A stretch of 64,000 nt of DNA. Source: Spartobacteria bacterium LR76 (GTDB lineage: Bacteria > Verrucomicrobiota > Verrucomicrobiia > Chthoniobacterales > Terrimicrobiaceae). Where the stretch lies: assembly GCA_003054655.1 (NCBI GenBank), contig QAYZ01000013.1:248001-312000 (forward strand). Direction: 5' to 3'. The notes under the pieces were generated by a model. It was given only the letters and a program-made list of their open reading frames with translations, did no database searches and had not been told where the DNA came from. Made by a program: the position numbers and the translations under genes. Below are positions 18,959 through 33,599 of this stretch, piece after piece (within the stretch, counting starts at the first letter, position 1; the number at the start of each line of letters is the position of its first letter).

Positions 18959-19807
18959 CTAATCGCGTTTAACAAAGTGAAATCCCTTGAAGGAGGTTTT
19001 TCCGCCTTCCAACGGATAGTGATCAAGGTTCTTCCATTCCGAGACACAACTGTACCCCGCGCTTTTCATCTGATTCAGAAAGCGGTTCTCAGAAAAGAAC
19101 CAGGCCGGGTAGGAAGCCTCGTAAACATGCTTAGGAACACGCTGAATCGTCAACCGGTCTACGGGCTGATCCACCAAGGCCAGCTTGTCAAAGACTACAG
19201 ACGAAACCCCTTGGGAGACGAGGCGGTCGAGAACATCGAATGGAGATTCGACATATTGCAGTGAGGCACCAAAAAAGACCGCATTGGGCTTGATCGCCTC
19301 AATGCCCTGGTCGATCCCGCGAAAGAATTGCAGGTTCGCGGAAGACAACTCCTTGTTTCCGAAATCCACGTAATGAGGCTGTTCCACTACCCCCCACCGG
19401 AGCAAAGAAAGATCAGCCAGATAAGGACGAGACTGGAAGTAGACGCTTCCAAGCGATCCCCCAAAATCCAGCACTCTAAGTTCCCCCTTGTCTTTTGCCG
19501 CCTGCCATAGCAGCGCCGCAAGCGTCTCCCACCGATGCTCCGGCTTTTCAAACAGGATGGAGTCGCGTTCGAAAGCCGCTCGTCTGTCCCGAACCGCGAG
19601 GGCTGCATCCTTGATCTTCGCAAAAATCTGCTCTGCATCGTACCCATCACACTCGGCTGCGGCTACCTCCCAGGAACGATAGTTTCCTGAAAAAGCGGGC
19701 GGCTCCACCGGAGCTACATCCAGTACACGTTCGTCTGTAGTCTTAACCAATGCGGAGTAAACTTTCCTAAGGTACTCCCGGAACGATGGAACGTCACGCA
19801 GAGACAT
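18959..19807 (-). CDS. TIGR04325-type putative methyltransferase
   Basis: The protein has about 282 residues. It contains LRVLDFGGSLGSVYFQSR as a SAM-binding glycine loop, WGVVEQPHYVDFG, LQFFRGIDQGI and FGASLQYVESPFDVLDRL. This combination is the pattern I associate with the TIGR04325 family of putative methyltransferases, often found in O-antigen clusters. The ATG giving MSLRDVPSF overlaps the upstream stop as TAATG; an earlier start 21 codons upstream is unlikely. The acceptor is not known for the family. Confidence 0.75.
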   Translation of the reverse strand: MSLRDVPSFREYLRKVYSALVKTTDERVLDVAPVEPPAFSGNYRSWEVAAAECDGYDAEQIFAKIKDAALAVRDRRAAFERDSILFEKPEHRWETLAALLWQAAKDKGELRVLDFGGSLGSVYFQSRPYLADLSLLRWGVVEQPHYVDFGNKELSSANLQFFRGIDQGIEAIKPNAVFFGASLQYVESPFDVLDRLVSQGVSSVVFDKLALVDQPVDRLTIQRVPKHVYEASYPAWFFSENRFLNQMKSAGYSCVSEWKNLDHYPLEGGKTSFKGFHFVKRD

Positions 19808-20739
19808 TACTTTAGGAAAAAAACCGAGCGCAAACGACGGATCGCGCGGGAGAAAACACCTGCAGCGCAATCTCGCGACCGCGACTGACGACGTAAAAAA
19901 CTAACAATTCTGTTTCTAGCCTGCAAGTTTTCCTTCAAGGGAAGCCGCGCGACATTCACCGAACGGCTCTTCGCATCGACCAAAAGATGGGCCGGGACAT
20001 TATGACAGTGCGTTCCACTCCCATCGAGCCCGATATTTCGAACAAGCGAGCGACCGGGGTGCAAGGTCAGCATGCCTTTCAAGAAAGCAGATGCATGCCA
20101 CCGAATCGCCCAGGAATCATTTCGCCCCTCGATCTGTTCGCGAAGCATCTGAGTGTAGTGAACTGTACCGTCGAGATCAAACTCGTGCTGTAGCCCACGA
20201 TCTTCAATCTCTCGCAATAAACGATTCCCATCGGACTCGAAAGCCCTCCACGCCCTTTGCCAGGTGGCCCAACCCCAGCAATCCGCTCCTCTGAGGAAGA
20301 ACGTCTCAGGGAGCCCCTTCATTTCATAAACGAACCCATGAATACAGGCTACAGCCTCATCATCTCGGTAGATATTTATGGCATCATTCATGTACCGGAG
20401 GAAAAACGGAGAGGTGACGATATCATCCTCCATCACGATGACCGACTCATAAGTCTCAAGCATTCTCGAAACCCCGCCAATAATCGATGCTGCAAGTCCG
20501 ATGTTCTTTTCCTGCTCAACTAATGACACGGACTGAAAAGCTCCAATCGACGCCACATACGCACGAATGTCAGCGCTGATGGCTTTATCCCCATCATTCT
20601 TCGGTCCATCCAGAAAAACAAACAGCTTGGATTCGGGAGCTAAAGCGTTTGCCGCCAGCGCCTCAACCGTTCGCCGCAAATGCTGCGGACGGTTGTAGGC
20701 GAAAAGAGCGATCGGAGCTGGAGTATATACACGGGTCAC
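19807..20739 (-). CDS. GT2-like glycosyltransferase
   Basis: The 310-residue enzyme starts APIALFAYNRPQHLRRTVEA and carries LFVFLDGPKN, EKNIGLAASI and VIVMEDDIVTSPFFLRY, in which EDD is the metal-binding motif. GADCWGWATWQRAW is a tryptophan-rich segment typical of this GT2 subgroup, found near nonulosonate and amino-sugar clusters. It sits at the edge of the AT-richer section, right after the GT-B gene. The C-terminal tail is strongly basic. Confidence 0.78.
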   Translation of the reverse strand: MTRVYTPAPIALFAYNRPQHLRRTVEALAANALAPESKLFVFLDGPKNDGDKAISADIRAYVASIGAFQSVSLVEQEKNIGLAASIIGGVSRMLETYESVIVMEDDIVTSPFFLRYMNDAINIYRDDEAVACIHGFVYEMKGLPETFFLRGADCWGWATWQRAWRAFESDGNRLLREIEDRGLQHEFDLDGTVHYTQMLREQIEGRNDSWAIRWHASAFLKGMLTLHPGRSLVRNIGLDGSGTHCHNVPAHLLVDAKSRSVNVARLPLKENLQARNRIVSFLRRQSRSRDCAAGVFSRAIRRLRSVFFLK

Positions 20740-20745
20740 ATCACA

Positions 20746-22599
20746 TTAAATTCCGGCCTCGGGCGACCCGCCATAACTGCTCAATATCCGCTTCACCAAT
20801 TCCTTAAACCTCCCACCCCCTGCCAACAGCCTTCCACCTTTCATCAAACCTAGCTGTTCAGCAAATTTAGCAAGCATTTCATTCATCGCATCAGCTTCTT
20901 CACTATTTTTGGATTTTTCTTCAATCGAGTAATGACGCTTGCCCTGAAGCCGCAGGACTTCGCGACTATCAGATGCTAATTGAGGATTTCCCGTCAAGAT
21001 TTCAACCAGAACATCCGCCCCCTCCAAGTCACTCGCACGACTTACGATTTGATTATATTGCCCATGAAATGCGTCATGAGTAACTAGCTCATTCCGAAAG
21101 TGCCAGTGGAGCCTCGGACTCCGCTTTATTTTTCCAACTGCCTCGCAGATCAACTCAAATAAACTTGCATTGCGCCGCTTCCTTCCTCTCAAAGAAATTG
21201 TACTTCCAAATTGCAAAAGCCAAATCCAACGAAACGTCTGCCGAGCTCGTTCCAGCGTCCAGTCCATATCCAGAGCTTCCAGGATTCCCTTCCAGTAAGA
21301 ATCGCCATCGAGACAATACTTATCAGCAATCGGCCAATAGGAATTTACCGGATTTGCGGGCATCACAATTGGACAACCGAAAGCACTTGCCTCTAGCAAG
21401 GCTGAACTCCAACAAGACAAGACCAGATCGGCCTCTGCAATTAACTGGTAGAGGCTGATATTTTCACTAGGCCAATTCACGAAAACATTCTCCGGCACCT
21501 TGTCCAATACGGCTAATAGTTTCTTCGCCTGCGCAGAAGTCACCCCCTCCCTCTTATTCGGAAACTCGCGCGGATGAACCCGGATGATAAGCGCAAGATC
21601 TGGCCTGGCTCGGAAATGCTCGATCAAAAACTCGATCCAATCGATCAAGCTCGGGAACACAAACTTGTCTGTGGAAAAATCCGCTATACCCGCACTACCC
21701 GCAGCAAAAATCTCGTCCGCACTGCTCGTGGCAGCAACGATTACTTTCCGGGTTCCTCCAAGGCTCGCGCGCTGAAGCAAGGGAGCGACGTCAACTTCAT
21801 CAACCGGCGCAGAGTAGGCGTGCGATGCCTTGCCCACAAATAGTTCCATGAAGTGCTCGCCAACCTCAAGAACCTCCTCTCGATCTAGAAGACGCCGCGA
21901 AAAACCATTCTGCCAATTTTTCACACAGGCACCCCAAAACGAATAGAACGCGCCAGATGTGAACATTAACGTCTCCCAAACTCGCCGATGCGAGAGGCCT
22001 CCATGCATGGAATACGTCTGAATTCCAGCCTTTTGTGCCAAGCTGGATATCACATTATTCAAAGAATAGTTTGAATTATAAGTCAACAATCCCGCAACTT
22101 CATTCCGCTGTAGAAACCTAGCAAATCGCCAAGAGAGGATAAGCGCGGCTCTTACCAGCCTCTTATAAGATCCAAAAACTTCACCCTCTCCAAGCATGGA
22201 GTACTCATTGACTTTATGTTCAAGGACAATGTCATACAGACACATTCGCCCAACCGGAACACCATCCACACATATGCCGAGAAGTTCATCGAGTGAATCA
22301 TTTTTCACTAACTCCTCAGCACGGCTATAATCCTCAAAATCCGCATAATTCGAGAGATTATCCTCTCGCGCATTCGAGGCTGTTCTTCGAACAACAGCCT
22401 GTTCCAAAACGCATCGCTCGCATCGGAATGTGCCGTCAGCATTTTCGGTAACGCACTCAACCAAGCGGCACGTGCACTCCGCCGCGCGCAACCTCGTCAC
22501 AGGAATACGCCTCGCTGCCAGAACATCCATTATCTGCAACTCCGTTCGAACGAACGGCATCACGTGCGCATTGAGAGAGAATACAATAAGTTGTCTCAT
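20746..22599 (-). CDS. Large GT-B-type glycan protein with capsule-synthesis-like domain and N-terminal Cys cluster
   Basis: The 617-residue protein contains a central GT-B-like region: YSMHGGLSHRRVWE, LALIIRVHPREFPNKREG, and LVLSCWSSALLEASAFGCPIV, which resembles the C-terminal CMP-sugar-binding part of capsule-synthesis (PF05159-like) glycosyltransferases. Its N-terminus carries Cys42, Cys44, Cys49, Cys60 and Cys63 (CTC, C, CERC), a spacing that could hold zinc. The neighbouring CMP-nonulosonate genes make it the best candidate in the window for the nonulosonate transferase, which is inference. Base composition is clearly more AT-rich than in the genes downstream. Confidence 0.65.
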   Translation of the reverse strand: MRQLIVFSLNAHVMPFVRTELQIMDVLAARRIPVTRLRAAECTCRLVECVTENADGTFRCERCVLEQAVVRRTASNAREDNLSNYADFEDYSRAEELVKNDSLDELLGICVDGVPVGRMCLYDIVLEHKVNEYSMLGEGEVFGSYKRLVRAALILSWRFARFLQRNEVAGLLTYNSNYSLNNVISSLAQKAGIQTYSMHGGLSHRRVWETLMFTSGAFYSFWGACVKNWQNGFSRRLLDREEVLEVGEHFMELFVGKASHAYSAPVDEVDVAPLLQRASLGGTRKVIVAATSSADEIFAAGSAGIADFSTDKFVFPSLIDWIEFLIEHFRARPDLALIIRVHPREFPNKREGVTSAQAKKLLAVLDKVPENVFVNWPSENISLYQLIAEADLVLSCWSSALLEASAFGCPIVMPANPVNSYWPIADKYCLDGDSYWKGILEALDMDWTLERARQTFRWIWLLQFGSTISLRGRKRRNASLFELICEAVGKIKRSPRLHWHFRNELVTHDAFHGQYNQIVSRASDLEGADVLVEILTGNPQLASDSREVLRLQGKRHYSIEEKSKNSEEADAMNEMLAKFAEQLGLMKGGRLLAGGGRFKELVKRILSSYGGSPEAGI

Positions 22600-22603
22600 G
22601 CGA

Positions 22604-23656
22604 CTAGATCAAGTCCCAGGTCAAGGGCGTACCTTTTTTGATATCACGTTGCGCCACTTTTCCGATCACCATATCCCAGTTTTTGACAGCCATTCCGTAG
22701 CCCGGGCGAATGCACCTAACATTCTTTTCCGACAGCACATCCCCTTTCTTCACATCCGCAGAAATGAATAGGGACCTTCGGAACATCAGCGAGCTTTCCT
22801 CAGCGCGGGTTGCCCCATATGAAACCTGCCCAAGAGCCTGCCAGGCGCGACCGGTCTCCTCTACCAAGGTTCGGAACTCCTCGGGTTCCAGAGAAAAGGC
22901 TGAATCTACCCCGCCTTCATCTCGTCGTAGCGTGAGATGCTTCTCCACGACAGACGCACCAAAGACGACAGCCGCCGTTGCCACCCCCGTCCCCATCGTG
23001 TGATCCGAAAGCCCTACCTGACATTCAAACAATTCACGGAGATGAGGTATGGTCCGCAGATTCGAATTCTCCGGGGAAGCAGGGTAGGTGCTAGTGCACT
23101 TGAGCAAAATCAGATCGCGGCATCCAGCCGCTCTTGCGACCCGCACAGTCTCGTCAAGTTCGGCCACCGTTGCCATGCCTGTGGAAATAATCAACGGCCG
23201 TCCGGTTGATGCAGCTTTTCTGATAAGCCGGTGATCGGTGTTTTCAAAAGATGCTATTTTATAACAGGGGACATTCAGGCTCTCGAGAAAATCAACCGCA
23301 CTTTCATCGAAGGGAGAGCTGAATGCGAGCATACCCAGTTCTGAGGCGCGGTCAAAGATAGGCTTATGCCATTCCCAGGGAGTGTATGCGTCCTTATACA
23401 GGCTGTAGAGCGACTTTCCATGCCATAGACTCTGAGGGTTCAATATCTGAAACCGCTCATCATCGATATCCATGGTCATGGTGTCCGCAGTGTAGGTCTG
23501 GATCTTAATCGCATGTGCCCCCGCATTTGCAGCCGCATCCACAATTTGAAGAGCTCGCTCCAGAGATTGATTGTGGTTGCCGGACATCTCCGCAATGCAG
23601 AAAGGGGCATTGTTCGATCCAACGAGACGGGACGCGATTTTGACCTCTTTGCTCAT
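22604..23656 (-). CDS. pseI: Pseudaminic acid synthase-type nonulosonate synthase
   Basis: The 350-residue enzyme condenses phosphoenolpyruvate with a 2,4-diacetamido-2,4,6-trideoxyhexose to give a nine-carbon nonulosonic acid. FCIAEMSGNHNQSLERA and GAHAIKIQTYTADTMT are the NeuB-fold PEP site, WHGKSLYSLYKDAYTPWEWH is the PseI-typical segment, and QVGLSDHTMG holds the conserved metal/PEP region. The last 60 residues form the antifreeze-like SAF domain. The length is normal. The PseI-like segment and the presence of PseB, PseC and PseG favour pseudaminic over sialic or legionaminic acid. Confidence 0.9.
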   Translation of the reverse strand: MSKEVKIASRLVGSNNAPFCIAEMSGNHNQSLERALQIVDAAANAGAHAIKIQTYTADTMTMDIDDERFQILNPQSLWHGKSLYSLYKDAYTPWEWHKPIFDRASELGMLAFSSPFDESAVDFLESLNVPCYKIASFENTDHRLIRKAASTGRPLIISTGMATVAELDETVRVARAAGCRDLILLKCTSTYPASPENSNLRTIPHLRELFECQVGLSDHTMGTGVATAAVVFGASVVEKHLTLRRDEGGVDSAFSLEPEEFRTLVEETGRAWQALGQVSYGATRAEESSLMFRRSLFISADVKKGDVLSEKNVRCIRPGYGMAVKNWDMVIGKVAQRDIKKGTPLTWDLI

Positions 23657-25164
23657 GGTTGTAACTCTTTCAAAAAACTGGCACTCTCCTCATGATATCC
23701 CGACCCTTCAAACAATGCCCGTGACCGCCCGTTTCCGGCCATGATCCGTGCTCGGATTTTTCGAATATCACCACGGTGATTTTTCAGCCAAATCTCAGCC
23801 CGCAGCAGCAACTTTCTGCCTAACCCTTTTTTTTCCTGACCTGGAACCAAATAGATCGAAACTCTGGCGTCGCTGTCGATGAAATCATATCGCACCACCC
23901 CAACTGGAGCCATCTCCCGGTACCCGATCAAAAGGACGCTCGTTGTGGAAGACAGGATTCCCTTAAACCATTGTTCGTGCATCTCCCAAGGAATCACGCC
24001 GGGGTCGCCACAGAATCTTCGAATGTCGGGATGATTACGCCACTCAAAAATCTCACGTGAATCTGACAAGCACGCGGGCCGGATTTGAACAACGTCATCA
24101 TCCAATAAGGCCGCAACCCTCGACAATCCCAAGCCATCAACGACCGCCATGGCTTGAAATGACATATGCTCCCTCAATGGCATATTATCAACAAGCGCAG
24201 GCAAATGCTTCTCAAGCGTCTCCTCAAAGGTCTCGTGTCCATCCGGGGCATATAAGAGACCTTCCCGAGCTGCATCTCCAACCTGACGCATCTGATTTTC
24301 AGCAGTCGCAAAGGCTATTGTGGGCAGACCCAGGCACCACCGCTCTAGCACCGCGGTCCCCCCGGCCCCGATTGCCATGTCCGCCTGAGCCATCAACACT
24401 GCCATGCGATCAGTCTGAATATGACAATCAAAACCCTGCCTACAACAACACTCCCTAATCTCATCGATAAACGGATGCATGTTGCCAATCACAACATCAA
24501 CCCGAAAGCTTCGAGATCGCATAGCGGCTAATACATGCAGGGCACGACCAGTAAGATTGTCTTTATCGACACCGCCAAAAAAGAGAAGCACCCTATTCAC
24601 TGGCCCAGCACGCAGCGCAGCCTGATTTCTTGCCGCCATGAACTCCTTTCTCAGCAATGCGTATCGAGGACCAATCAAGCAGCAGCAATGTGCCGGAACC
24701 TTATTCACATAGCGCGATTCTGCATCTCGATAATAGTTCTGATCCAGCAGCCAGTCACAATCATGCACGCGATCAGCAAGATCATCGATGACAAATATCT
24801 TCTTCACGCATGAGCGCATCTCTCGCTCCCATCTCTCGTCGAGTGCATAATGGTCGACAACCAATAGATCCCACTCTCCATCAGAAAGAGCTTCTTTACA
24901 CGATGTGGCATCTGCCAACTGGCTAGTTCCCAACCACTCCGCATGAGGCGGTCCCTGTTCGGTCGACGCTTCTGAAGGTGCATCGATAATGCGTACCTGA
25001 TAGCCGCGCTGCTGCAATTTCGCGTGCAACTGCGGCGGTAAGTGCCGACAACAGAATCGGATCGCGATTCCTGGTTTGAAAAGCGCGTTCGCGAGGGTCA
25101 AACAGCGCTGAAAATGGCCGCTTCCAATCTGAACCGAAACATCTGTACGGAAGGCTATTCTCAA
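23653..25164 (-). CDS. Fusion of PseG-type UDP-sugar hydrolase and PseH-like GNAT acetyltransferase
   Basis: The 503-residue protein joins two steps. Residues 1 to about 345 are PseG-like: IGSGHFQRCLTLA supplies the catalytic His17, FVIDDLADR and FFGGVDKDNLTGRAL are GT-B-type segments, and IGAGGTAVLERWCLGLPTIA is the nucleotide-binding end; it should remove UDP from the 2,4-diacetamido altrose intermediate. Residues about 358-503 form a GNAT domain (EIFEWRNHPDIRRF, YLVPGQEKKGLGRKLLLRAE) like PseH, which N-acetylates C4. Separate proteins are usual; the fusion places N-acetylation and UDP release on one chain. The start overlaps no gene, and its own stop overlaps pseI as ATGA. Confidence 0.88.
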   Translation of the reverse strand: MRIAFRTDVSVQIGSGHFQRCLTLANALFKPGIAIRFCCRHLPPQLHAKLQQRGYQVRIIDAPSEASTEQGPPHAEWLGTSQLADATSCKEALSDGEWDLLVVDHYALDERWEREMRSCVKKIFVIDDLADRVHDCDWLLDQNYYRDAESRYVNKVPAHCCCLIGPRYALLRKEFMAARNQAALRAGPVNRVLLFFGGVDKDNLTGRALHVLAAMRSRSFRVDVVIGNMHPFIDEIRECCCRQGFDCHIQTDRMAVLMAQADMAIGAGGTAVLERWCLGLPTIAFATAENQMRQVGDAAREGLLYAPDGHETFEETLEKHLPALVDNMPLREHMSFQAMAVVDGLGLSRVAALLDDDVVQIRPACLSDSREIFEWRNHPDIRRFCGDPGVIPWEMHEQWFKGILSSTTSVLLIGYREMAPVGVVRYDFIDSDARVSIYLVPGQEKKGLGRKLLLRAEIWLKNHRGDIRKIRARIMAGNGRSRALFEGSGYHEESASFLKELQP

Positions 25165-25175
25165 TTCCTTAGCCT

Positions 25176-27203
25176 TCAGTTAAGGCGAGCGAAGGTCGAG
25201 TGGCATATCTGCCCCTTGAGCAAATCGTCAACATTTCGACCATTCTCACATTCCTGAATAAGGTGAAAAACGGGGAGCAGTTTTTCAAAATATTGCTCAA
25301 CTATCTCCGCCGTGTGAGCGAGACTTGCATAGACACTATTGCTGGCAAGGAATCCCTGGGCCAGCATCTCCTGAGTAATCAGAGTCTTGTACTTAAGTGC
25401 ATTCGGACTCTGGAAACTGAACCCGGTGAGCGCAGGCAGTCCCCAATGAAATATTGTCAATCCGCAACTCTCCGCAAGAGCTTGCCAGCGCTTACGGATA
25501 CTTAGGCCGATTGCAGTAACAACCTCCCAAGATCGTTCCCGCTCCATGATCTCCAGTGTCTTTAGAGCCGCAGTGGGACCAATTCGCTCCGTCCAGAACG
25601 TACTGCTGATAAAAGTTCCCTGAGCAGCCTCCATCACCGCTTCACGCCCGATCACTGCGGTGATTGCATATCCGTTGCCCAAGGCCTTCCCGAAAATCGC
25701 AATATCAGGTTCAACACCATACTTTTTGTGCAGCCCCCCGAATGTTTCACGAAAGCCAGATGTACACTCGTCGAAGATCAGGACAATATTCTTCTTCGTC
25801 GCCAACTCGCGAACTTTCTCCAGGAACCCATCCTCCGGGCCAAAGTTTCTTGAGACTTCCATTTTTATAACCCCGATATTATGCAGGGATACCAGAGTCT
25901 CAAGCTCGTCAAACCTGTTGTATGCAAACGGAAAAACCGTACCCTTGAGATTACGCGGAACGCCTCGCGGCTCCAGGCCCGGCAGCAGATGACCATCGAG
26001 ATTGGCATCATCCGCCAGATTGGCGGAGAGATACCAATCATGCCATCCATGGTAACCGCAAATTGCAACATTATCACGCCCCGCAGATGCACGGGCGATG
26101 CGAATTGCGATCGCATTGGCCTCTCCTCCTGATCTTGCAAAGCGCACCATGTCAGCCCATGGATGCAACTCAATCAGTCGCTCAGCCAGATAGACTTCCT
26201 CAGGACAGTTCAGCGTGGCCATGTTGCCAGCATGAACAGTTTCTATCACTGCTTCGTCTACCTCCGGATGCCCATAGCCTAGTACATTTGTGCCAACCCC
26301 CATAATGGACATGTCGATATACTCTCGTCCATCGAGATCCCAAACCTTGCAACCCTTGGCCTTGCTAAAATATGACGGCCAAAGATCCGGCAGAAACATC
26401 TCTGACCTCTTTGAAAGCAACATATTGCCTCCAGGAATAACCTTTTTGGCTCTCTTCCAAAGCTTCTGGCCTATTCCCATATCAGCACCCTGATTGCGAC
26501 CTAGATGACTATTAGCCGCAAAGACGGATGGATTTTCGTCGTTCAACTTCATAACTTCTCTCCAACCAAAATCCACCCGTGGGGAAAAGTGATCAAAAAT
26601 GGCAGATACGACCTTAAGATCCTCCTTTTCATCAACGGTCCATCGTTTGTGCGAGTAATCGATCTTTCCCGCGACGTTGAACTTGGTGAACTGATCCGAC
26701 TCTCGCAAGAATGGAGTGACATGCTCACGATGAGCGGGCTTTGTCGCAGATTTCGCAGCTATTTCCAGTGCCTTAAAGGAAAAGACTTCGCAATCCAAAC
26801 CGTCAGGAAATGTCGGCGGAAGAATATTGGCTGCATAATCCACCGCATGCTCCTGATAGGCACGAACAACCGTGTCAACCAGTTCGGCATCTATTAGAGG
26901 ACAATCTCCGGTAATCCGCACAATCGACTCCGGCTGTTGTACTTTGGCGGCCTGGTAAAATCGATCCAACACATCCGTTTCGCTTCCCCGATACGTCTCG
27001 TATCCCAGAGAATGCACATGATCCACCAATGGTTGGTTGCGCGGATCAGAGGATGTCGCCAGCACGATCTTGTCAATCGTACGGGCCATGGAAAGACGAA
27101 GCAGCAGCAGCTCGATCATGGGAACTCCCTGAAGAGAATGCATGACCTTGTTCGGAAATCTGACCGAACCCATACGAGCCTGAAGGATGGCCAATACTTT
27201 CAT
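25176..27203 (-). CDS. Fusion of SpsF/PseF-type cytidylyltransferase and class III (HemL-like) aminotransferase
   Basis: The protein has 675 residues. Residues 1-230 are a cytidylyltransferase domain (AILQARMGSVRFPNKVM, ITGDCPLIDAELVD) like SpsF/PseF, which makes CMP-nonulosonate. Residues about 245-675 are a PLP class III aminotransferase resembling glutamate-1-semialdehyde aminotransferase: RFARSGGEANAIAIRIAR, IFDECTSGFRE (Asp478) and FGKALGNGYA with the PLP Lys506 are all intact. The aminotransferase activity has no place in the standard pseudaminic pathway, so it may act on a further keto group of a modified nonulosonate. The ATG used overlaps the upstream stop as ATGA. Confidence 0.88.
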   Translation of the reverse strand: MKVLAILQARMGSVRFPNKVMHSLQGVPMIELLLLRLSMARTIDKIVLATSSDPRNQPLVDHVHSLGYETYRGSETDVLDRFYQAAKVQQPESIVRITGDCPLIDAELVDTVVRAYQEHAVDYAANILPPTFPDGLDCEVFSFKALEIAAKSATKPAHREHVTPFLRESDQFTKFNVAGKIDYSHKRWTVDEKEDLKVVSAIFDHFSPRVDFGWREVMKLNDENPSVFAANSHLGRNQGADMGIGQKLWKRAKKVIPGGNMLLSKRSEMFLPDLWPSYFSKAKGCKVWDLDGREYIDMSIMGVGTNVLGYGHPEVDEAVIETVHAGNMATLNCPEEVYLAERLIELHPWADMVRFARSGGEANAIAIRIARASAGRDNVAICGYHGWHDWYLSANLADDANLDGHLLPGLEPRGVPRNLKGTVFPFAYNRFDELETLVSLHNIGVIKMEVSRNFGPEDGFLEKVRELATKKNIVLIFDECTSGFRETFGGLHKKYGVEPDIAIFGKALGNGYAITAVIGREAVMEAAQGTFISSTFWTERIGPTAALKTLEIMERERSWEVVTAIGLSIRKRWQALAESCGLTIFHWGLPALTGFSFQSPNALKYKTLITQEMLAQGFLASNSVYASLAHTAEIVEQYFEKLLPVFHLIQECENGRNVDDLLKGQICHSTFARLN

Positions 27204-28567
27204 AGAGCAGACCACTTATAGGGATTTAACAAATCTAAATCCTTTGCTTGAAGTTCCGAAGGAACAGTGAACGCCTGCCCCCTTGCAGACGCGTAGATCT
27301 CCTGAAATTGTCGAAGGCTTTCCATGCCGACAACCACCCTGGAGATCTCAGGAAAAGAAAGAACGTACCGCAAACACGCCGCCAAAGGCGTAAGCTTGGT
27401 CTGATACAGCCACTCATCCCAGGCTGACCATAGGGAAGCCCATCGGCCAAATTTCGCCGGTCGATCTGCGGAAGACATCAGTAACAGACCTTGCAGGAAA
27501 ACTGAACGAACATGTAATTCGACATCCGACTCTACCAGTTTCTTCATCCAGCCGGACTCAATCAACCTTCGGTCAATAATATTGAATGGTGCCTGCACAA
27601 GATCCAAGGCGTAACAGCGGAAAATCTCATCAAGCTCGGAAGGGGAATATATAGATATGCCGATCTTCTTTGCCAAGCCAAGCTCCTTTACCCGGGTGAG
27701 CGCACGGTAGATTTGCGGGCCACGCGGTCCAAGCAGTTGACCTGGCACATGCAGTAACAGGCCATACAGACTCGGTATACGCAGCCGATCCAAGGAGGCC
27801 TTTACCTGATGATCCATCCACTCTTCAATATTCAAGCAGTCATCAGGCACTGCTCCGATCTTCGATACGACCTTCCAATCGTCAGCGGCGATAGCACCAA
27901 GCACGGCCTCGCTCTCTCCATAGGCTGCCGCGGTATCCAATGTATCAATTCCTAGAGAGAATGCTTCCCTCAAAATATCGCGAACCTCTTCAATATCAGA
28001 TTTCCTCGCCCGCTTAACCCCATAATCCATGCCGAATTGGACCGTCCCTATCGCCAGCCGTCGCGCAGGATCAAGATCCAGAACCATTTTCAGGTTGCCA
28101 TTCGCATCGTTGTCGTATGGGAGAAAACCGATTTTCTCATAAGCTCGCCGGGCCGCGAGATTATCAGGACTCACTCCAAGCAGGATTCTCGAAATCTTCC
28201 TATCCTTCGCCAGCCACTGGTTGCCAGCGCTGATCACCTCTCCAGCCACTCCCTTTCCGCGCCATTGCACTTCGCCGACAAGTATGCCGCACACTGCGAT
28301 TTGTTTGGAATAGTCAATTGGTTCGTATTTGAGATTCCCGATATGTTCCCCGGTTTCTCGTATGAATATTCCGAGAAACAAGACATCGTCCCTTCCACTC
28401 CGTTCAGCGACGTAGTCGCGAAGCTGCTCAAGGCTGGACCGAGAAGCCGCTACGATATACTGTTGACTAGCCGGATCGAGCAGCCAACCAGCATACCGTT
28501 CCGTCACATTCGCGACGGATAACGGCTTCAGGTCGAAGCGCGCCGTCGATATCACTGCGCCAGACAT
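27200..28567 (-). CDS. Fusion of GNAT acetyltransferase and aldo/keto reductase
   Basis: The 455-residue protein has two domains. Residues 1 to about 165 are a RimJ-type GNAT acetyltransferase (GEVQWRGKGVAGEVI, NLAARRAYEKIGF). Residues 168-455 are an aldo/keto reductase with the complete catalytic set: Asp211 and Tyr216 in DTAAAYG, Lys236 in VVSKIG and His273 in LLHVPG. The reductase should use NAD(P)H on a sugar carbonyl. Neither domain has an assigned step in the classical pathway if the GNAT of the downstream PseG fusion is PseH, so one GNAT is extra. It overlaps the pseC gene by 16 nt. Confidence 0.87.
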   Translation of the reverse strand: MSGAVISTARFDLKPLSVANVTERYAGWLLDPASQQYIVAASRSSLEQLRDYVAERSGRDDVLFLGIFIRETGEHIGNLKYEPIDYSKQIAVCGILVGEVQWRGKGVAGEVISAGNQWLAKDRKISRILLGVSPDNLAARRAYEKIGFLPYDNDANGNLKMVLDLDPARRLAIGTVQFGMDYGVKRARKSDIEEVRDILREAFSLGIDTLDTAAAYGESEAVLGAIAADDWKVVSKIGAVPDDCLNIEEWMDHQVKASLDRLRIPSLYGLLLHVPGQLLGPRGPQIYRALTRVKELGLAKKIGISIYSPSELDEIFRCYALDLVQAPFNIIDRRLIESGWMKKLVESDVELHVRSVFLQGLLLMSSADRPAKFGRWASLWSAWDEWLYQTKLTPLAACLRYVLSFPEISRVVVGMESLRQFQEIYASARGQAFTVPSELQAKDLDLLNPYKWSAL

Positions 28568-29706
28568 TCTTTTAAAGACTGAACAACTTTTCGCAGATCC
28601 TCGTCTCTGAGTCCGGGGTACAAAGGAAGACTGATGGCTTCGCGATAGTAGGATTCCGCTGCGGGAAAGTCCCCGGGATTGAACCCCATCGACCTGTAAT
28701 ATGGCTGCAGGTGAACGGGGATGTAATGCACATTCACGCCGATTCCGTTTTCCCGCAGGAACTGAAAGACTGCTGCGCGCGATTTCTTCTCCGCCTTGAT
28801 GCGAATTACGAAGAGGTGAAAAGCAGGGTATTGATCCGCCCGGACTCTCTGGAATGTCACGGGCGAGCCGCTCAACTCCTCACGGTACCTTCCCACCAAC
28901 TCATGCCGTCGGGCGACGTAGGCTTCGAGACGCTCCATCTGGCTGCGCCCCAGGGCAGCATGGATATCCGTCATGCGGTAATTGAATCCCAGATCAATCT
29001 GCTGATAGTACCAAGCCCCCTCCGATTCCGCAGTCATTTCGCCGGGATCGCGGGTGATGCCATGACTCCGCAGGAGACTCATGCGATGAGCCAGAGTGCC
29101 GTCGTTTGTTACAGCCACACCGCCTTCACCACTCGTAACGATTTTGACCGGATGAAAGCTGAATACGGTGATGTCGCTGTATCGACAACTCCCCACAATG
29201 TTCTGTCCGTCGCGGGCACCGATCGCGTGGGAGGCATCCTCAATAACGCGAAACCCAAAACGCTGGCCGAGGGCATGGATCGCGGCCATATCACAGGGGG
29301 TGCCGCAGAGGTGAACGGGAACGACCACTTTGGGCAGACGTCCTGCGCGTTCAGCCTCGATGAGCTTTCGCTCAAGTGCTTGAGGGCAGAGGTTAAAAGT
29401 CTCGGGATCGATGTCCACAAAATCAACCTCCGCACCGCAATAAAGCCCGCAGTTGGCCGACGCCACAAAAGTGATCGGACTTGTCCAAAGTCGATCTCCC
29501 TTTCCCAGGCCCAAGGCAAGACATGCGATGTGCAGCGCCGAAGTCGCACTATTCACGGCGACCGCGTGCGCCGCTCCGCAATAAACAGCAACTGCTTGCT
29601 CAAAAGCGGGCACTGCCGGCCCCTGGGTCAGAAAATCGGACCGCAAAACACCGACTACCGCATCGATGTCGGATTGAAGAATTTCCTGGCGACCGTAGGG
29701 AATCAT
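28552..29706 (-). CDS. pseC: UDP-4-amino-4,6-dideoxy-N-acetyl-beta-L-altrosamine transaminase
   Basis: The 384-residue DegT-family PLP enzyme aminates C4 of the keto product of PseB, using glutamate. YGRQEILQSDIDAVVGVL at the N-terminus, VIEDASHAIGA (Asp157) and FSFHPVKIVTSGEGG with the PLP lysine Lys188 are the typical PseC motifs. Length and domain completeness are normal. It stands directly after pseB, 27 nt downstream, in the expected biosynthetic order. Confidence 0.93.
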   Translation of the reverse strand: MIPYGRQEILQSDIDAVVGVLRSDFLTQGPAVPAFEQAVAVYCGAAHAVAVNSATSALHIACLALGLGKGDRLWTSPITFVASANCGLYCGAEVDFVDIDPETFNLCPQALERKLIEAERAGRLPKVVVPVHLCGTPCDMAAIHALGQRFGFRVIEDASHAIGARDGQNIVGSCRYSDITVFSFHPVKIVTSGEGGVAVTNDGTLAHRMSLLRSHGITRDPGEMTAESEGAWYYQQIDLGFNYRMTDIHAALGRSQMERLEAYVARRHELVGRYREELSGSPVTFQRVRADQYPAFHLFVIRIKAEKKSRAAVFQFLRENGIGVNVHYIPVHLQPYYRSMGFNPGDFPAAESYYREAISLPLYPGLRDEDLRKVVQSLKECLAQ

Positions 29707-29733: not shown

Positions 29734-30744
29734 TCAGGCCGGAGAGAATCCGGAATCAATATGCTCGCGGATTAACTCACGCAGTTCCTTGACGGAAAGC
29801 CATTCTGAGTTGGTATTGCTCGCATAGCTGAATCCATACTCGCGCAATTCTCCGCCGAATTCCTTCTTGAATTCGTCAACATTCCATATGGGCGTCGATG
29901 GGATGATCACATAATAACCGTCGAATTCCACCGTGTTGAGGCCATCCGTCTCCGTGATCATTTCTTCATGGAGCTTCTCCCCGGGGCGGATACCGACCAC
30001 GTTTCGAGAGGAACCGGGTGAGATGGCTTCAGCAACATCGAGAATGCGATAGCTGGGAATCTTCGGAACAAAAATCTCACCGCCCCAGCTCTTCTCCAAA
30101 GCCAGCATTACCAGCGAAACTCCTTCCTCCAGAGTGATGTTGAAACGGGTCATCCGCTCGTCCGTGATGGGCAGTACCCCGCTCTTCCGCTTCTCCAAAA
30201 AGAACGGAATGACACTGCCCCGGCTGCCCATGACGTTTCCGTAACGAACAACGGAGAACTTGATGTCATGTCTACCGCGGAAGTTGTTTGCTGCAACGAA
30301 CAGCTTGTCGGAACACAGCTTGGTCGCGCCGTACAAGTTAATGGGAGCGGCAGCCTTGTCGGTGCTCAGCGCCACCACTTTCTTCACTCCCCGTGCAATC
30401 GCCGCCTCGATCACATTTTGAGCACCGAGGACGTTGGTCTTGATCGCTTCAAAGGGATTGTACTCCGCGGCAGGCACCTGCTTGAGCGCGGCGGCATGTA
30501 TCACATAATCGACATCCTCCATCGCATGCATCAGTCGACTCCCGTCGCGGACGTCGCCGATAAAGTATCGAATCTTGTTCGACTGAAAATCGGGATCCAT
30601 CGACATCTCGAACTGCTTCAGCTCGTCACGGGAAAAGACAATTATCCTGCGTACGGAATGGTTGCGCAGGATCGTTTTGATAAACTGCTTTCCAAAAGAG
30701 CCGGTGCCGCCGGTGACCAGGATCGATGTACCGTCAAGATTCAT
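29734..30744 (-). CDS. pseB: UDP-N-acetylglucosamine 4,6-dehydratase (inverting)
   Basis: The 336-residue enzyme makes UDP-2-acetamido-2,6-dideoxy-beta-L-arabino-hexos-4-ulose, the first step of pseudaminic acid synthesis. VTGGTGSFGKQF is the NADP-binding loop. The active site shows Asp129, Lys130 and Tyr138 in STDKAAAPINLYGATK, with the same spacing as the known FlaA1 triad. FVPKIPSYRILDVAE and IRPGEKLHEEMI are substrate-binding segments of this family. Located right after the transporter genes, it leads the nonulosonate cassette. Confidence 0.94.
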   Translation of the reverse strand: MNLDGTSILVTGGTGSFGKQFIKTILRNHSVRRIIVFSRDELKQFEMSMDPDFQSNKIRYFIGDVRDGSRLMHAMEDVDYVIHAAALKQVPAAEYNPFEAIKTNVLGAQNVIEAAIARGVKKVVALSTDKAAAPINLYGATKLCSDKLFVAANNFRGRHDIKFSVVRYGNVMGSRGSVIPFFLEKRKSGVLPITDERMTRFNITLEEGVSLVMLALEKSWGGEIFVPKIPSYRILDVAEAISPGSSRNVVGIRPGEKLHEEMITETDGLNTVEFDGYYVIIPSTPIWNVDEFKKEFGGELREYGFSYASNTNSEWLSVKELRELIREHIDSGFSPA

Positions 30745-30789: not shown

Positions 30790-32070
30790 TCAGCTCGCCT
30801 GCACACTGAGGATGTTGGCCTTCAGTTCCGTACGATCTCCCCGGGTACTGTCTTCCAATTCGTGAATTTGCAGCGGCGTTACCATGCCATCTACAATGTC
30901 GTAGTATTCATCAACGGTTTGTTCCACCGATGGTCCCAGCCAGATATAGAGATCGTAAAGCGCCGAGGGCAGAGCGGTCGTGTCGACCTCCAGGGTTGAC
31001 TCGATAACGGTATCCGGTGCCAACGGCTCATCGTTCAACCTGTACCGGCGCGTGGACATGATATGTTCTCCCGAGAGTCCCAGCTTGAAAGAGAGGCAGA
31101 TGGCGAGATCTTCGCAGCGGCGAAGGACCCTGATTCTTGAACGGAACCGTATTGTCGTTCCCCGCCGATGCTGGTTGCCGATTTCTCCGTTTGGGCCGAT
31201 AACCTTGAAATCTTCCAGCCGGACGCGCCCGTCTCCACGCCTCAAACGATAGTCGTGCAGCCCCTCGGCGACGCCGATCTGCAGGTTCTGCGTATACTTG
31301 AGATAGGCAGAGGCCACTTCCTTGCTCTCCCCCGCCATGCGCATCTGGCCGTCGTGGAGCCAGAGGCATTTCTTGGTGAGGTTTTCGACCAGCACCATGG
31401 AGTGGCTGACGAGGATGACCGTGCGGCCCTCCTTGGCTACCTTGCCCATCTTGCCGATACACTTGCGCTGGAAGTTGGCATCACCAACAGCGAGCACTTC
31501 GTCGACGATGAGCACTTCGGGATCGAGGTGAGCGGCGACAGCGAAAGCCAACCGTACATACATGCCGCTCGAGTACCGCTTCACCGGTGTGTCGATGAAT
31601 TCTGCAATCTCCGAAAACTCCACGATCTCGTCAAATTTTCGACGCACTTCCTTTTGGCTCATGCCAAGGATGGCGCCATTGAGAAAAACGTTTTCGCGTC
31701 CGGTAAGTTCCGGATGAAATCCCGTGCCGACCTCCAGCAGGCTGGAAATGCGGCCTCGCGTCTTGATGACTCCCGAGGTCGGCGAGGTTGTGCGGCTGAG
31801 AATCTTCAGGAGCGTGGACTTGCCGGCACCGTTTCGGCCGATGACGCCCAGGGTATCGCCAGCATTAATGCTGAAGTTGATATCCCGCAGCGCCCAGAAC
31901 TCGCTCCCTTTTTCGATCCGGTTTTGATGCTCTCCGATGACCGCATGCGGGTCCTCCTTGCCTCTCTTGCGCGCCCACCAGCTCTGGAGGTCCTTGACGA
32001 GCATGCCCCGGTTGATGGTGCCGAGGCGGTAGCGCTTGGAGACGTTTTCGATGCGGATTAGTTCAGACAT
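30790..32070 (-). CDS. wzt: Polysaccharide ABC exporter ATP-binding protein with C-terminal cargo domain
   Basis: The 426-residue protein powers export of the undecaprenyl-linked glycan across the inner membrane. The ATPase core has the Walker A GRNGAGKS (residues 78-85), the signature YSSGMYVRLAFAVA (from residue 166), and Walker B VLIVDE ending at Asp190-Glu191. After about residue 260 there is a C-terminal domain (LRRGDGRVRLEDFKVIGPNG onward) of about 165 residues that matches the carbohydrate-binding Wzt domain of O9a-type systems, which recognises a modified non-reducing end. That links chain export to the methyltransferases of this cluster. It lies 19 nt after wzm. Confidence 0.93.
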   Translation of the reverse strand: MSELIRIENVSKRYRLGTINRGMLVKDLQSWWARKRGKEDPHAVIGEHQNRIEKGSEFWALRDINFSINAGDTLGVIGRNGAGKSTLLKILSRTTSPTSGVIKTRGRISSLLEVGTGFHPELTGRENVFLNGAILGMSQKEVRRKFDEIVEFSEIAEFIDTPVKRYSSGMYVRLAFAVAAHLDPEVLIVDEVLAVGDANFQRKCIGKMGKVAKEGRTVILVSHSMVLVENLTKKCLWLHDGQMRMAGESKEVASAYLKYTQNLQIGVAEGLHDYRLRRGDGRVRLEDFKVIGPNGEIGNQHRRGTTIRFRSRIRVLRRCEDLAICLSFKLGLSGEHIMSTRRYRLNDEPLAPDTVIESTLEVDTTALPSALYDLYIWLGPSVEQTVDEYYDIVDGMVTPLQIHELEDSTRGDRTELKANILSVQAS

Positions 32071-32089
32071 TCGCTTTCAGTCGCCTCCT

Positions 32090-32962
32090 CTAGATGGTGT
32101 CGGCGAAGTCTTTTTCGACCTGGTTGAAAACCGCCACTCCCACGGCAAATATGACGAAGGAGACCACGGTCAGAATGCCTAGCTCGGGGTAATTTACCGA
32201 GCCGGTTCCGAGGAAGGAATTGCGAAAGGCTTCGATGATCGGGGCCACGGGGTTGAAATCGAGGATCCAGCGATATCTTTCATCGATCTGCGAGCGGGAG
32301 TAGAAAATGCAGCTCCCGTACATCCAGAGCTGCATGCCAAAGCTCAGGGCCATCTGGAGATCGCGGTAGCGGGTGGTGAGCGAGCTGACGATGCAGCCGA
32401 ATCCGATGCCCATCAGGCAGACTTGCAGGACGAGGAGCGGGAAAGTGAGTACATCGATGCCGGGGCGGATGTCGTTCCCGCGCAGGTAAAAGAACAGCAG
32501 AAAGGCCAGAAACATCAGGAACTGGAGGACAAACGTCGCCAGCACGGAGAACACCGATGCGATAGGGACAGTGAGCCGGGGGAAGTACACCTTGCTAAAG
32601 ATCTGCGCATTGGCGGAGAAAACTCCGGAGCAGCGCATGAGGCAGGCGGAAAAGAGCCCCCACATCACGATGCCGGGCATGTAGAAAATAAAGGGCGGCA
32701 CGCCGGAGGTGCCCATCTTGGCGATCTGGCCGAAGACGAGAGCAAAGGCGAGAGTTGTCAGCAAGGGCTGGAGGATGAACCACACCGGGCCGAGCACGGT
32801 TTGCTTGTAGGTGGAAACAAAATCCCGGCGGAAGAAGAGGTAGATCAGGTCGCGATACCGCCAGACGTCGGCGAGGTTCAAATCAAACCACGATCTCTTC
32901 GCTGTAATGATTCTGTCCCATTTCTCGGAGGAGATGCCGGGTGTTTTTACGAGACTATCCAT
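32090..32962 (-). CDS. wzm: Polysaccharide ABC exporter permease
   Basis: The protein has about 290 residues and six predicted membrane segments (for example WFILQPLLTTLAFALVFGQI and the C-terminal ILTVVSFVIFAVGVAVFNQV). It starts with the RDLIYLFFRRDFVSTYKQTV coupling helix typical of ABC-2 O-antigen permeases. It forms the export channel with the ATPase encoded just downstream. The ATG giving MDSLVKTPG was chosen. A TTG 135 nt upstream would add 45 polar residues and overlap the regulator gene by 11 nt, and cannot be excluded. Confidence 0.9.
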   Translation of the reverse strand: MDSLVKTPGISSEKWDRIITAKRSWFDLNLADVWRYRDLIYLFFRRDFVSTYKQTVLGPVWFILQPLLTTLAFALVFGQIAKMGTSGVPPFIFYMPGIVMWGLFSACLMRCSGVFSANAQIFSKVYFPRLTVPIASVFSVLATFVLQFLMFLAFLLFFYLRGNDIRPGIDVLTFPLLVLQVCLMGIGFGCIVSSLTTRYRDLQMALSFGMQLWMYGSCIFYSRSQIDERYRWILDFNPVAPIIEAFRNSFLGTGSVNYPELGILTVVSFVIFAVGVAVFNQVEKDFADTI

Positions 32963-33086
32963 TAAATCGAAATTTTCCGGGCATGCTGCCGCCCCTGGCC
33001 ATCCGTCTTCGGGCGGGACCGTTTGCTCTGTTTTGCTTTGATTGGTTTTGTCTGCTGCACAGACAGTGCTCCTCGAGGGAGCGGGT

Positions 33087-33599
33087 TTATCGGACAAGAA
33101 ACTTCAATATCCAGGGGAGCATCTTGTTCCCCTTTTCGAGCCAGTGCTTGAGCCGCTCGATTTTCATCATGGTGGCTTTGCGCTGCTCGGGGGTCATGTC
33201 AGCGGAGAGTTGCTCCATGCGGCGGATGCGCTCGAGGGCGCGCTCCATGCGGGGGTGGAGTTCTTCCTTGATGAAGGCGGTGGCAAATCTGCTCAGCTCC
33301 AGATCGGCCACGTAATGATCCCGCCGGTCTCCAGGGACGTAGGTGGCTTTCACCGCTCCCACTCCGCGCAGGAGCTTGAGTCCCTGGCTGGCGGCCCCGA
33401 GACTGATATTCAACCGGCTCATGACCTCATCCATCGCCAGGGGCTTCGGGGCGACAAACAGCAAGCCGTAGATCTCCCCGACCGATTTCGGCAACCCAAT
33501 GAGTTTCAGGAAGTTGATAAACATCTGGATAGCCTCGATCTCGAGTTCTGACAACTCTTTGCCCGCTTCCTCTGGCAAGGTGATGGGTTTCTCCAGCAT
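33087..33599 (-). CDS. GbsR/MarR-type winged-helix transcriptional regulator
   Basis: The protein has about 170 residues. KLIGLPKSVGEIYGLLFVAP followed by DEVMSRLNISLGAASQGLKL is the GbsR-type winged helix-turn-helix, and VKATYVPGDRRDHYVADLE is the wing. The C-terminal 60 residues form long basic and acidic helices that probably dimerise. It is the first gene of the exporter cluster, in the same direction, so local control of glycan export is likely. The ATG (MLEKPITL) was preferred; upstream TTG codons could add 14 residues, and the AAGGA before the ATG is unusually close. Confidence 0.82.
   Translation of the reverse strand: MLEKPITLPEEAGKELSELEIEAIQMFINFLKLIGLPKSVGEIYGLLFVAPKPLAMDEVMSRLNISLGAASQGLKLLRGVGAVKATYVPGDRRDHYVADLELSRFATAFIKEELHPRMERALERIRRMEQLSADMTPEQRKATMMKIERLKHWLEKGNKMLPWILKFLVR

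What the first reader, a model, noticed from the sequence alone, without database searches (positions are those of the whole stretch)
23653..28567. Three consecutive two-domain fusion proteins in one nonulosonate cassette
Adjacent genes encode PseG+GNAT, cytidylyltransferase+class III aminotransferase, and GNAT+aldo/keto reductase. Each half is a separate protein in the usual pathways I know. All key residues appear intact (His17 of PseG, PLP Lys506, reductase tetrad D211/Y216/K236/H273), so these look like working bifunctional enzymes that channel intermediates rather than random joins.
Basis: partly seen in the sequence, partly recalled or inferred. Interest (0 to 1): 0.75.

Follow-up and report, generated by a model that had tools for sequence, protein, structure and literature searches.

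The report
Fused genes for bacterial sialic-acid-like sugar
A bacterium has joined six enzymes of a sialic-acid-like (pseudaminic) sugar pathway into three double proteins; two of the three joins are common elsewhere, and the extra enzymes probably put an additional amino group on the sugar, a step for which no assignment was found.

Summary
In detail: three neighbouring genes encode PseG+GNAT, SpsF-type cytidylyltransferase (CTP)+class III aminotransferase (AT3) and GNAT+aldo/keto reductase (AKR), in a tight operon with PseB, PseC and PseI. The fusions are unequally novel. CTP+AT3 is fused in 75 of the 80 best named loci, in 12 phyla, and its tree fits one fusion. PseG+GNAT is common (15 of 42 PseG-bearing loci). 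GNAT+AKR was found nowhere else (0 of 85 other loci able to show it), but a free GNAT of the same subfamily lies in that place in 13 loci, so it joins neighbours. All three together were seen only here. Channelling is untested. The stronger finding is a module: AKR accompanies CTP-AT3 in 40 of 41 complete 20-kb loci, more constantly than PseC (33) or PseG (23). No canonical pseudaminate step needs AKR or AT3. A known CTP+AKR protein (EpaA, with EpaB) changes C8 of pseudaminic acid, and an 8-amino pseudaminate-like sugar exists in Flexibacter maritimus. Best reading: AKR oxidises the C8 hydroxyl, AT3 aminates it, CTP makes the CMP-sugar, and the AKR-linked GNAT may acylate the amine. This is inference; no enzyme was assayed.

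The parts
29734..30744 (-). PseB, UDP-GlcNAc 4,6-dehydratase (inverting)
   Evidence: TIGR03589 520 bits, cut-off 408
28552..29706 (-). PseC, DegT-type aminotransferase (the C4 amination of the UDP-sugar)
   Evidence: TIGR03588 553 bits, cut-off 424
27200..28567 (-). GNAT + aldo/keto reductase fusion, 455 aa
   Evidence: Pfam PF13302 res. 12-148 and PF00248 res. 171-427; no other locus with this fusion found
28124..28534 (-). GNAT domain of the AKR fusion; candidate acyltransferase for the extra amine
   Evidence: 123 bits against an HMM of 13 free GNATs lying between PseC and AKR elsewhere (window left out), 28 bits against the PseG-linked GNAT HMM
27203..28072 (-). AKR domain, D211/Y216/K236/H273 intact; proposed C8 oxidase
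   Evidence: tetrad kept in 72 of 72 named rows; barrel modelled with block-mean pLDDT 88-98 from residue 171
25176..27215 (-). SpsF-type cytidylyltransferase + class III aminotransferase fusion, 679 aa
   Evidence: Pfam PF02348 and PF00202; 75 of 80 best named loci carry the same fusion
26496..27215 (-). cytidylyltransferase domain; proposed CMP-nonulosonate synthetase
   Evidence: ten tested residues of the QARMGS..R.P.K and TGDCP motifs kept in 74-76 of 76 rows
25179..26480 (-). AT3 domain (GSAM-like), K510; proposed C8 aminotransferase
   Evidence: K510 and D482 in 76 of 76 rows; nearest PDB sequences are GSAM, E 2e-40; far below GSAM equivalog cut-offs
23653..25164 (-). PseG + GNAT (PseH-like) fusion, 503 aa
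   Evidence: TIGR03590 289 bits; C-terminal GNAT with PseH 52.8 bits, below cut-off; PDB relatives 3hbm (UDP-sugar hydrolase, E 1e-11) and 4xpk (PseH, E 4e-5)
22604..23656 (-). PseI, pseudaminic acid synthase
   Evidence: TIGR03586 493 bits, cut-off 340
30790..33097 (-). Wzt-type ATPase and Wzm-type membrane protein of a polysaccharide ABC exporter beside the cassette; suggests a surface polysaccharide as destination
   Evidence: Pfam ABC_tran, Wzt_C (28.0 bits, below its 30.4 cut-off) and ABC2_membrane

Best explanation
The operon makes a CMP-activated pseudaminic-type nonulosonate that carries an extra amino group, most likely at C8. PseB, PseC, the PseH-like GNAT, PseG and PseI make the nine-carbon sugar (assigned by sequence). 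The AKR domain oxidises the C8 hydroxyl to a ketone, AT3 transaminates it to an 8-amino group, and the SpsF-type domain joins the product to CMP (all three inferred). The GNAT fused to the AKR may acylate the new amine (weaker inference). The three fusions are joins of neighbouring genes in a conserved order, PseB-PseC-(GNAT)-AKR-CTP-AT3-PseG-GNAT-PseI: one old and spread between phyla (CTP+AT3), one frequent (PseG+GNAT), and one found only here (GNAT+AKR).
For: Order and joins. In the 41 named loci that hold a full 20 kb, AKR is present in 40, PseI 36, PseB 35, PseC 33, PseG 23: AKR is the most constant partner of CTP-AT3. Of 13 wide regions, 12 hold AKR, CTP and AT3 (8 of them with CTP and AT3 as separate genes). 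The module also serves loci without PseC and PseG (PseB directly before AKR in L050, L055, L071, L087, L097), where an RmlD-like reductase (L055, L087) and a synthase below both PseI and NeuB cut-offs (L050, L053, L055, L087) follow; a modification late on the nine-carbon chain fits both backgrounds, while amination at the PseC position would be redundant where PseC is kept. A PseF/NeuA-type gene is seen in 8 of 80 named loci, so the fused CTP is usually the only candidate CMP-sugar synthetase at hand; deletion of B. subtilis spsF leaves legionaminate made but not on the surface (PMC7439481, passages). C8: EpaA is CTP_transf_3+AKR and with EpaB turns Pse into 8-epi-Pse, shown by NMR (PMC12053666, passages); the same layout stands directly before CTP+AT3 in L042 and L077, and a PseF-type+AKR fusion in L095. 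Product: an 8-amino nonulosonate of manno type in Flexibacter maritimus LPS (PMC3210612, passages). Aeromonas: reductase and class III AT are together present (90, my sum of subgroups) or together absent (6) in 96 group I strains (PMC7874193 section 16); the AH-1 flagellin glycan has odd mass 403 with ions one unit off Pse5Ac7Ac9Ac (PMC4691044 section 5); OH to NH2 is -0.984 Da. Precedent for fusing a cytidylyltransferase to the transaminase that makes its substrate: PntC-AEPT (PMC6697681, passages).
Against: No enzyme was assayed. EpaA's sequence was not obtained, so kinship with these AKRs rests on domain layout only. AH-1's own gene content was not seen (its paper is cited among groups I or III), the direction of the one-unit shift is not stated, and its authors proposed a nitrogen-free formula. 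Whether F. maritimus carries the module was not testable. AKRs usually reduce. PseC is not universal: a PseC hit in 59 of 80 loci, only 47 at 38% identity or more, so in some loci AT3 could do PseC's work. AT3 also occurs without AKR: L108, L109, L111, L112, L189, 12 of 18 predicted viral contigs, among them both with fused CTP+AT3 (L159, and L161 with little upstream DNA), and 21 of 29 AT3 loci of the window's phylum within about 1.5 kb, mostly an outside clade of unfused rows. L212 has AKR without AT3. For C8 epimers, A. baumannii authors proposed CMP-sugars as substrates (PMC5595891, passage), so the order of steps is open.
Confidence: 0.55

Rival explanations
1. AKR and AT3 modify the sugar at another position or stage: for example C4 of the nonulosonate, or, in loci without PseC, amination of the keto sugar made by PseB.
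For: PseC is lacking in some loci where PseB directly precedes AKR (L050, L055, L071, L087, L097), and predicted viral contigs L163, L164, L166-L170, L174, L176, L180, L181 and L183 show PseB and AT3 without PseC. No positional evidence comes from these proteins themselves.
Against: EpaA/EpaB acts at C8; the window and most complete loci (33 of 41) keep a PseC-type hit in the same locus as AT3; the only extra-amino pseudaminate-like sugar met in these papers is 8-amino.
Confidence: 0.2
2. The sugar is ordinary Pse with a special acyl group: AT3 and AKR make the acyl donor or another building block, and the fusions are only compaction.
For: GNATs lie next to AKR and PseG; unusual acyl groups on nonulosonates are known.
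Against: AT3 is fused to a cytidylyltransferase in 75 of 80 named loci and AKR in L042, L077 and L095, which points to the nine-carbon sugar; EpaA/EpaB change the carbon chain itself.
Confidence: 0.12
3. One reading: the fusions exist to channel intermediates between consecutive active sites.
For: PseG and a PseH-like GNAT, and AT3 and CTP, may be neighbouring steps; the CTP+AT3 fusion is kept in 80 of 84 rows of its clade.
Against: Four unfused rows lie inside that clade; the AKR partner varies; GNAT+AKR occurs once; no structure or kinetics. The models gave no domain contacts that could be read here.
Confidence: 0.15
4. The GNAT-AKR join is an assembly or sequencing error that lost a stop codon between two genes.
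For: Seen only in this assembly; the linker is only a few residues, and separate genes lie in this order elsewhere.
Against: In-frame through both full domains, no N, no break in codon-position GC (weak test).
Confidence: 0.06

Closest known systems
Canonical CMP-Pse pathway (PseB,C,H,G,I,F)
   Same: PseB, PseC, PseG and PseI present over equivalog cut-offs; PseH-like GNAT present
   Different: SpsF-type enzyme in place of PseF; extra AKR, AT3 and a second GNAT; three fusions
Aeromonas flagellin glycosylation island group I (pseB pseC reductase pseF class III AT pseG pseI; PMC7874193)
   Same: Same genes in the same order; no function given to the two extra genes in the sections seen
   Different: pseF and AT3 are separate genes; no GNAT fused to the reductase
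EpaA/EpaB of Acinetobacter prophages (PMC12053666)
   Same: Cytidylyltransferase and AKR work together on pseudaminate; C8 chemistry shown by NMR
   Different: Partner is an SDR (EpaB) giving the 8-epimer; no aminotransferase; sequence not compared here
Vibrio B9-25K2 nab cluster with SpsF+AKR protein (PMC7371886)
   Same: SpsF-type domain joined to an AKR after PseC; PseH in a two-domain protein
   Different: A dehydrogenase follows; no class III aminotransferase is mentioned in the section read
PntC-AEP transaminase (Tde1415; PMC6697681)
   Same: Works like it: cytidylyltransferase fused to the transaminase that makes its amine-bearing substrate
   Different: Different nucleotidyltransferase and aminotransferase families and a phosphonate substrate; not put forward as a relative

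Membership tests
Pseudaminic acid cassette | PseB, PseC, PseG, PseI equivalogs side by side | tested here: met
   All four over NCBIfam cut-offs
Pseudaminic acid cassette | PseF/NeuA-type CMP synthetase (PARGGS) | tested here: not met
   Cassette has an SpsF-type domain instead; the three other PF02348 hits of the genome lie on other contigs
PseH | TIGR03585 over cut-off | tested here: not met
   52.8 bits for the PseG-linked GNAT, cut-off 93.1; the AKR-linked GNAT is not listed
Glutamate-1-semialdehyde aminomutase (HemL) | equivalog cut-off | tested here: not met
   178.6 v 527.3 bits for TIGR00713; 230.3 v 486 for NF004856
Class III aminotransferase | Pfam PF00202 over cut-off and PLP lysine | tested here: met
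   131 v 30.5 bits; K510 in 76 of 76 rows
Aldo/keto reductase | PF00248 and Asp-Tyr-Lys-His tetrad | tested here: met
   88.9 v 24 bits; tetrad 72 of 72 named rows
EpaA-type C8 module | AKR sequence kinship with EpaA | not tested
   No EpaA sequence was obtained; searches with relatives returned no phage CTP+AKR fusion
EpaA-type C8 module | SDR partner EpaB | not tested
   No EpaB sequence or model was at hand; the genes flanking the AKR gene in the window are PseC and CTP+AT3
8-amino nonulosonate synthesis | C8 oxidation and transamination activity | not testable with these tools
   needs enzymes and NMR

The most novel reading that the evidence does not exclude
AKR-CTP-AT3 is a mobile, cross-phylum module that turns pseudaminic acid and at least one PseC-independent nonulosonate into 8-amino-8-deoxy (and sometimes 8-N-acylated) sugars; it is the amine-forming sister of the EpaA/EpaB 8-epimerase, so the AKR is the C8 oxidase in both. 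It would explain the orphan 8-amino sugar of Flexibacter (Tenacibaculum) maritimus and the odd-mass flagellin glycan of Aeromonas hydrophila AH-1.
Probability: 0.48. Interest if true: 0.65.

Novelty: new variant of a known kind. Interest (0 to 1): 0.48.

Why it matters
The fusions by themselves are modest. What matters is that two enzymes for which I found no assigned role, present in surface-sugar loci of named records from Pelagibacteraceae, Prochlorococcus, Chlorobiaceae, Bacteroidota and others and in predicted viral contigs, receive a specific, testable chemistry. If right, an 8-amino group (positively charged when free) on a sialic-acid-like sugar is far commoner than the single structure met here suggests, which bears on phage receptors, flagellin recognition and capsule typing, and gives enzymes for making the sugar.

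Tried and rejected
Three independent novel fusions: rejected for CTP+AT3 and PseG+GNAT by the census. AT3 as HemL: fails the cut-offs. AT3 as a stand-in for PseC: not in the window, which keeps PseC, but left open for PseC-lacking loci. Retrieving EpaA: no match of the GNAT+AKR protein in phages; L077 CTP+AKR found three short cytidylyltransferase hits in phages; viral scans found nothing (46 used a low-complexity QN linker among its patterns); alignment A2 found five viral loci, of which L180, L181 and L183 carry AKR, CTP and AT3 as separate genes. The structure model of GNAT+AKR says nothing on the GNAT half (block-mean pLDDT 25-69 over residues 1-160; the alignment was thin there); only the barrel is usable, and its fold hits are general AKRs, among them L-galactose dehydrogenases. 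No fold search was run on the CTP+AT3 model. Literature on a function for AKR or class III AT in nonulosonate loci: in the listings of searches and in the passages I opened I saw no assignment; most listed papers were not opened, and only open-licence PMC papers are covered. Limits of the census: one search kept the best 80 of at least 588 stretches, so 75 of 80 is not a prevalence. In the window's phylum 3 of 387 sampled genomes gave a match spanning both domains (one, G261, with a stop between) against 39 with AT3 at E 1e-90 or better; among 147 relatives 4 did. Of the 97 AKR loci 12 are cut too near the AKR to show a fusion. Phyla come from record titles, some of which look misnamed for MAGs. 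Duplicates kept in counts: L005/L035, L116/L139, L120/L136, L114/L130, L166/L167; L214 and L215 have the contig lengths of L097 and L052. After the recount I lowered the two main odds slightly (0.58 to 0.55, 0.50 to 0.48) because of AT3 loci without AKR or PseC.
Full report
Observation. On the minus strand the window carries, in order of transcription, PseB (30744-29734), PseC (29706-28552), GNAT+AKR (28567-27200), cytidylyltransferase+AT3 (27215-25176), PseG+GNAT (25164-23653) and PseI (23656-22604). Overlaps of 16, 16 and 4 nt and a gap of 11 nt mark a tight operon. Domain and family scans confirm every half. Frames run through the junctions without N, and codon-position GC shows no break, though its bias is weak here. 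The cytidylyltransferase is SpsF-type. No PseF-type gene lies in the cassette, and the three other PF02348 matches of the genome are on other contigs.

How common the fusions are. A scan of genome contigs with the CTP+AT3 protein kept the best 80 of at least 588 matching stretches. HMMs built from the window's domains and their relatives, counted, give: CTP+AT3 fused in 75 of 80, spread over 12 phyla by record title; AKR in 74 of 80 (of the 6 without, L067 and L085 are cut at the contig end); AKR alone in 71, joined to a cytidylyltransferase in 3 (L042, L077, L095); PseG in 42, fused to a GNAT in 15. GNAT+AKR: 0 of 97 other loci with an AKR, 85 of which hold at least 450 nt upstream of the AKR domain; none among 10 matching genomes of 369 sampled in the class of L042's genome, and none among the 12 other matching genomes of 387 in the window's phylum (their loci are part of the 97). 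On a plasmid of Pseudosulfitobacter the two are annotated as separate genes. All three fusions together were seen only in the window. The 80 loci favour full-length relatives: in the window's own phylum 39 of 387 genomes have AT3 at E 1e-90 or better, and 3 give a match across both domains, one of them with a stop between.

How they arose. In the AT3 tree (133 rows, quick method) all 80 fused rows fall in one clade of 84 (support 100) with four unfused rows; five changes are needed, which fits one fusion and later separations, though the count cannot tell gain from loss. Phyla are interleaved, which suggests transfer between them; the window sits next to a Desulfocapsa MAG (support 90). L005, listed as same family as the window, lies on a contig of the same length as L035 (16360 bases), a Verrucomicrobiaceae MAG, and is identical in AT3 and AKR, so the window's organism is probably of Verrucomicrobiota. 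A free GNAT lies between PseC and AKR in 13 loci (12 named plus L120). An HMM of those 13, window left out, gives the window's AKR-linked GNAT 123 bits, while the PseG-linked GNAT HMM gives it 28; the window's PseG-linked GNAT gives 141 with the latter and is not listed with the former. So there are two distinct GNATs with fixed places, and the window fusion joins neighbours. The AKR tree does not place the window with GNAT-bearing loci in particular.

The module. In the 41 named loci with a full 20 kb, AKR is present in 40, PseI in 36, PseB in 35, PseC in 33, PseG in 23. In 13 wide regions, chosen by AT3 or CTP+AKR matches, 12 have AKR, CTP and AT3, 8 of them with CTP and AT3 unfused; L189 lacks AKR. 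In nine regions chosen by AKR seven have AT3; L209 ends at a contig edge, L212 lacks AT3, and L214 and L215 appear to repeat L097 and L052. AKR tetrad residues are kept in 72 of 72 named rows, AT3 K510 and D482 in 76 of 76. Limits: among 29 AT3 loci of the window's phylum with about 1.5 kb on each side, AKR is seen in 8 and neither AKR, CTP nor a Pse gene in 17; most of the latter form a separate unfused clade. Among 18 predicted viral contigs found with AT3, 6 have an AKR and 12 do not, among them both fused ones (L159, L161). L180, L181 and L183, found with AKR, carry AKR, CTP and AT3 as separate genes with PseB and a NeuB-type gene.

A second kind of locus. PseC is not universal: an HMM hit in 59 of 80 loci, at least 38% identical to the window's in 47, weaker in 12. 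In L050, L055, L071, L087 and L097 PseB lies directly before AKR. In L055 and L087 an RmlD-like reductase follows CTP+AT3 (an ORF of similar size and place in L050, L053 and L069 was not scanned), and the synthase of L050, L053, L055 and L087 scores below both the NeuB and the PseI cut-off. The same module thus serves at least two backbones. A change late on the nine-carbon chain fits both; amination where PseC acts would be redundant in loci like the window. But AT3 as the PseC of such loci, and of phage loci that show PseB and AT3 without PseC, is not excluded.

Mechanism. A cytidylyltransferase joined to AKR or AT3 points to the nine-carbon stage. [quoted passage not shown] Exchanging the SDR EpaB for an aminotransferase would give 8-amino instead of 8-epi; that is the core inference. 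An 8-amino sugar of this kind is reported from Flexibacter maritimus LPS (PMC3210612, passages; the newer name Tenacibaculum is recalled). In Aeromonas group I islands the reductase and class III aminotransferase occur together in 90 of 96 strains and are both absent from 6 (my sum of the subgroups in PMC7874193 section 16). Strain AH-1, cited there among groups I or III, has a flagellin glycan of 403 Da whose fragments differ by one unit from Pse5Ac7Ac9Ac (PMC4691044 section 5). An odd mass needs an odd number of nitrogens, and OH to NH2 costs 0.984 Da; the authors proposed another, nitrogen-free formula, and AH-1's gene content was not seen, so this is a hint only. The SpsF-type domain as CMP-sugar synthetase is consistent with the B. 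subtilis spsF deletion (PMC7439481, passages) and with a PseF/NeuA-type gene in only 8 of 80 named loci.

Against. No activity was measured; EpaA was not compared in sequence; the order of CMP transfer and C8 chemistry is open (PMC5595891, passage); some loci have only one of AKR and AT3.

Verdict. As fusions: two common, one new, a triple seen only here. As biology: a widespread module with a specific predicted product that can be tested directly.

Noticed in passing
L050, L053, L055, L069, L087 (around AT3): A second locus type without PseC and PseG: PseB, AKR, CTP+AT3, an RmlD-like reductase (shown for L055 and L087) and a NeuB/PseI-like synthase below both cut-offs; product unknown.
   Followed up: partly
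L164, L166-L169, L180, L181, L183: Predicted viral contigs carry PseI- or NeuB-like, PseB, AKR and AT3 genes, most also a CTP gene and a GNAT: phage-borne nonulosonate modules.
   Followed up: partly
L095:7436-9016: A PseF/NeuA-type (PARGGS) cytidylyltransferase fused to an AKR directly before a CTP+AT3 gene in a SAR86 genome.
   Followed up: partly
L094:7199-8992: An extended SDR (epimerase type) fused to the AKR in a Pelagibacteraceae genome, next to CTP+AT3.
   Followed up: no
window 20746-22599: A 617-aa protein directly downstream of PseI without a Pfam match and only a weak BFO_1060 glycosyltransferase hit; a candidate transferase for the sugar.
   Followed up: no
window 18959-19870: TIGR04325 (LIC12133) methyltransferase family protein beside the cassette.
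   Followed up: no
window 30790-33097: Wzm/Wzt-type polysaccharide ABC exporter genes immediately upstream of the cassette.
   Followed up: partly
L128 (G000:C1:40667-41185): A second, KAHS-type NeuA-like cytidylyltransferase elsewhere in the genome, context not examined.
   Followed up: no
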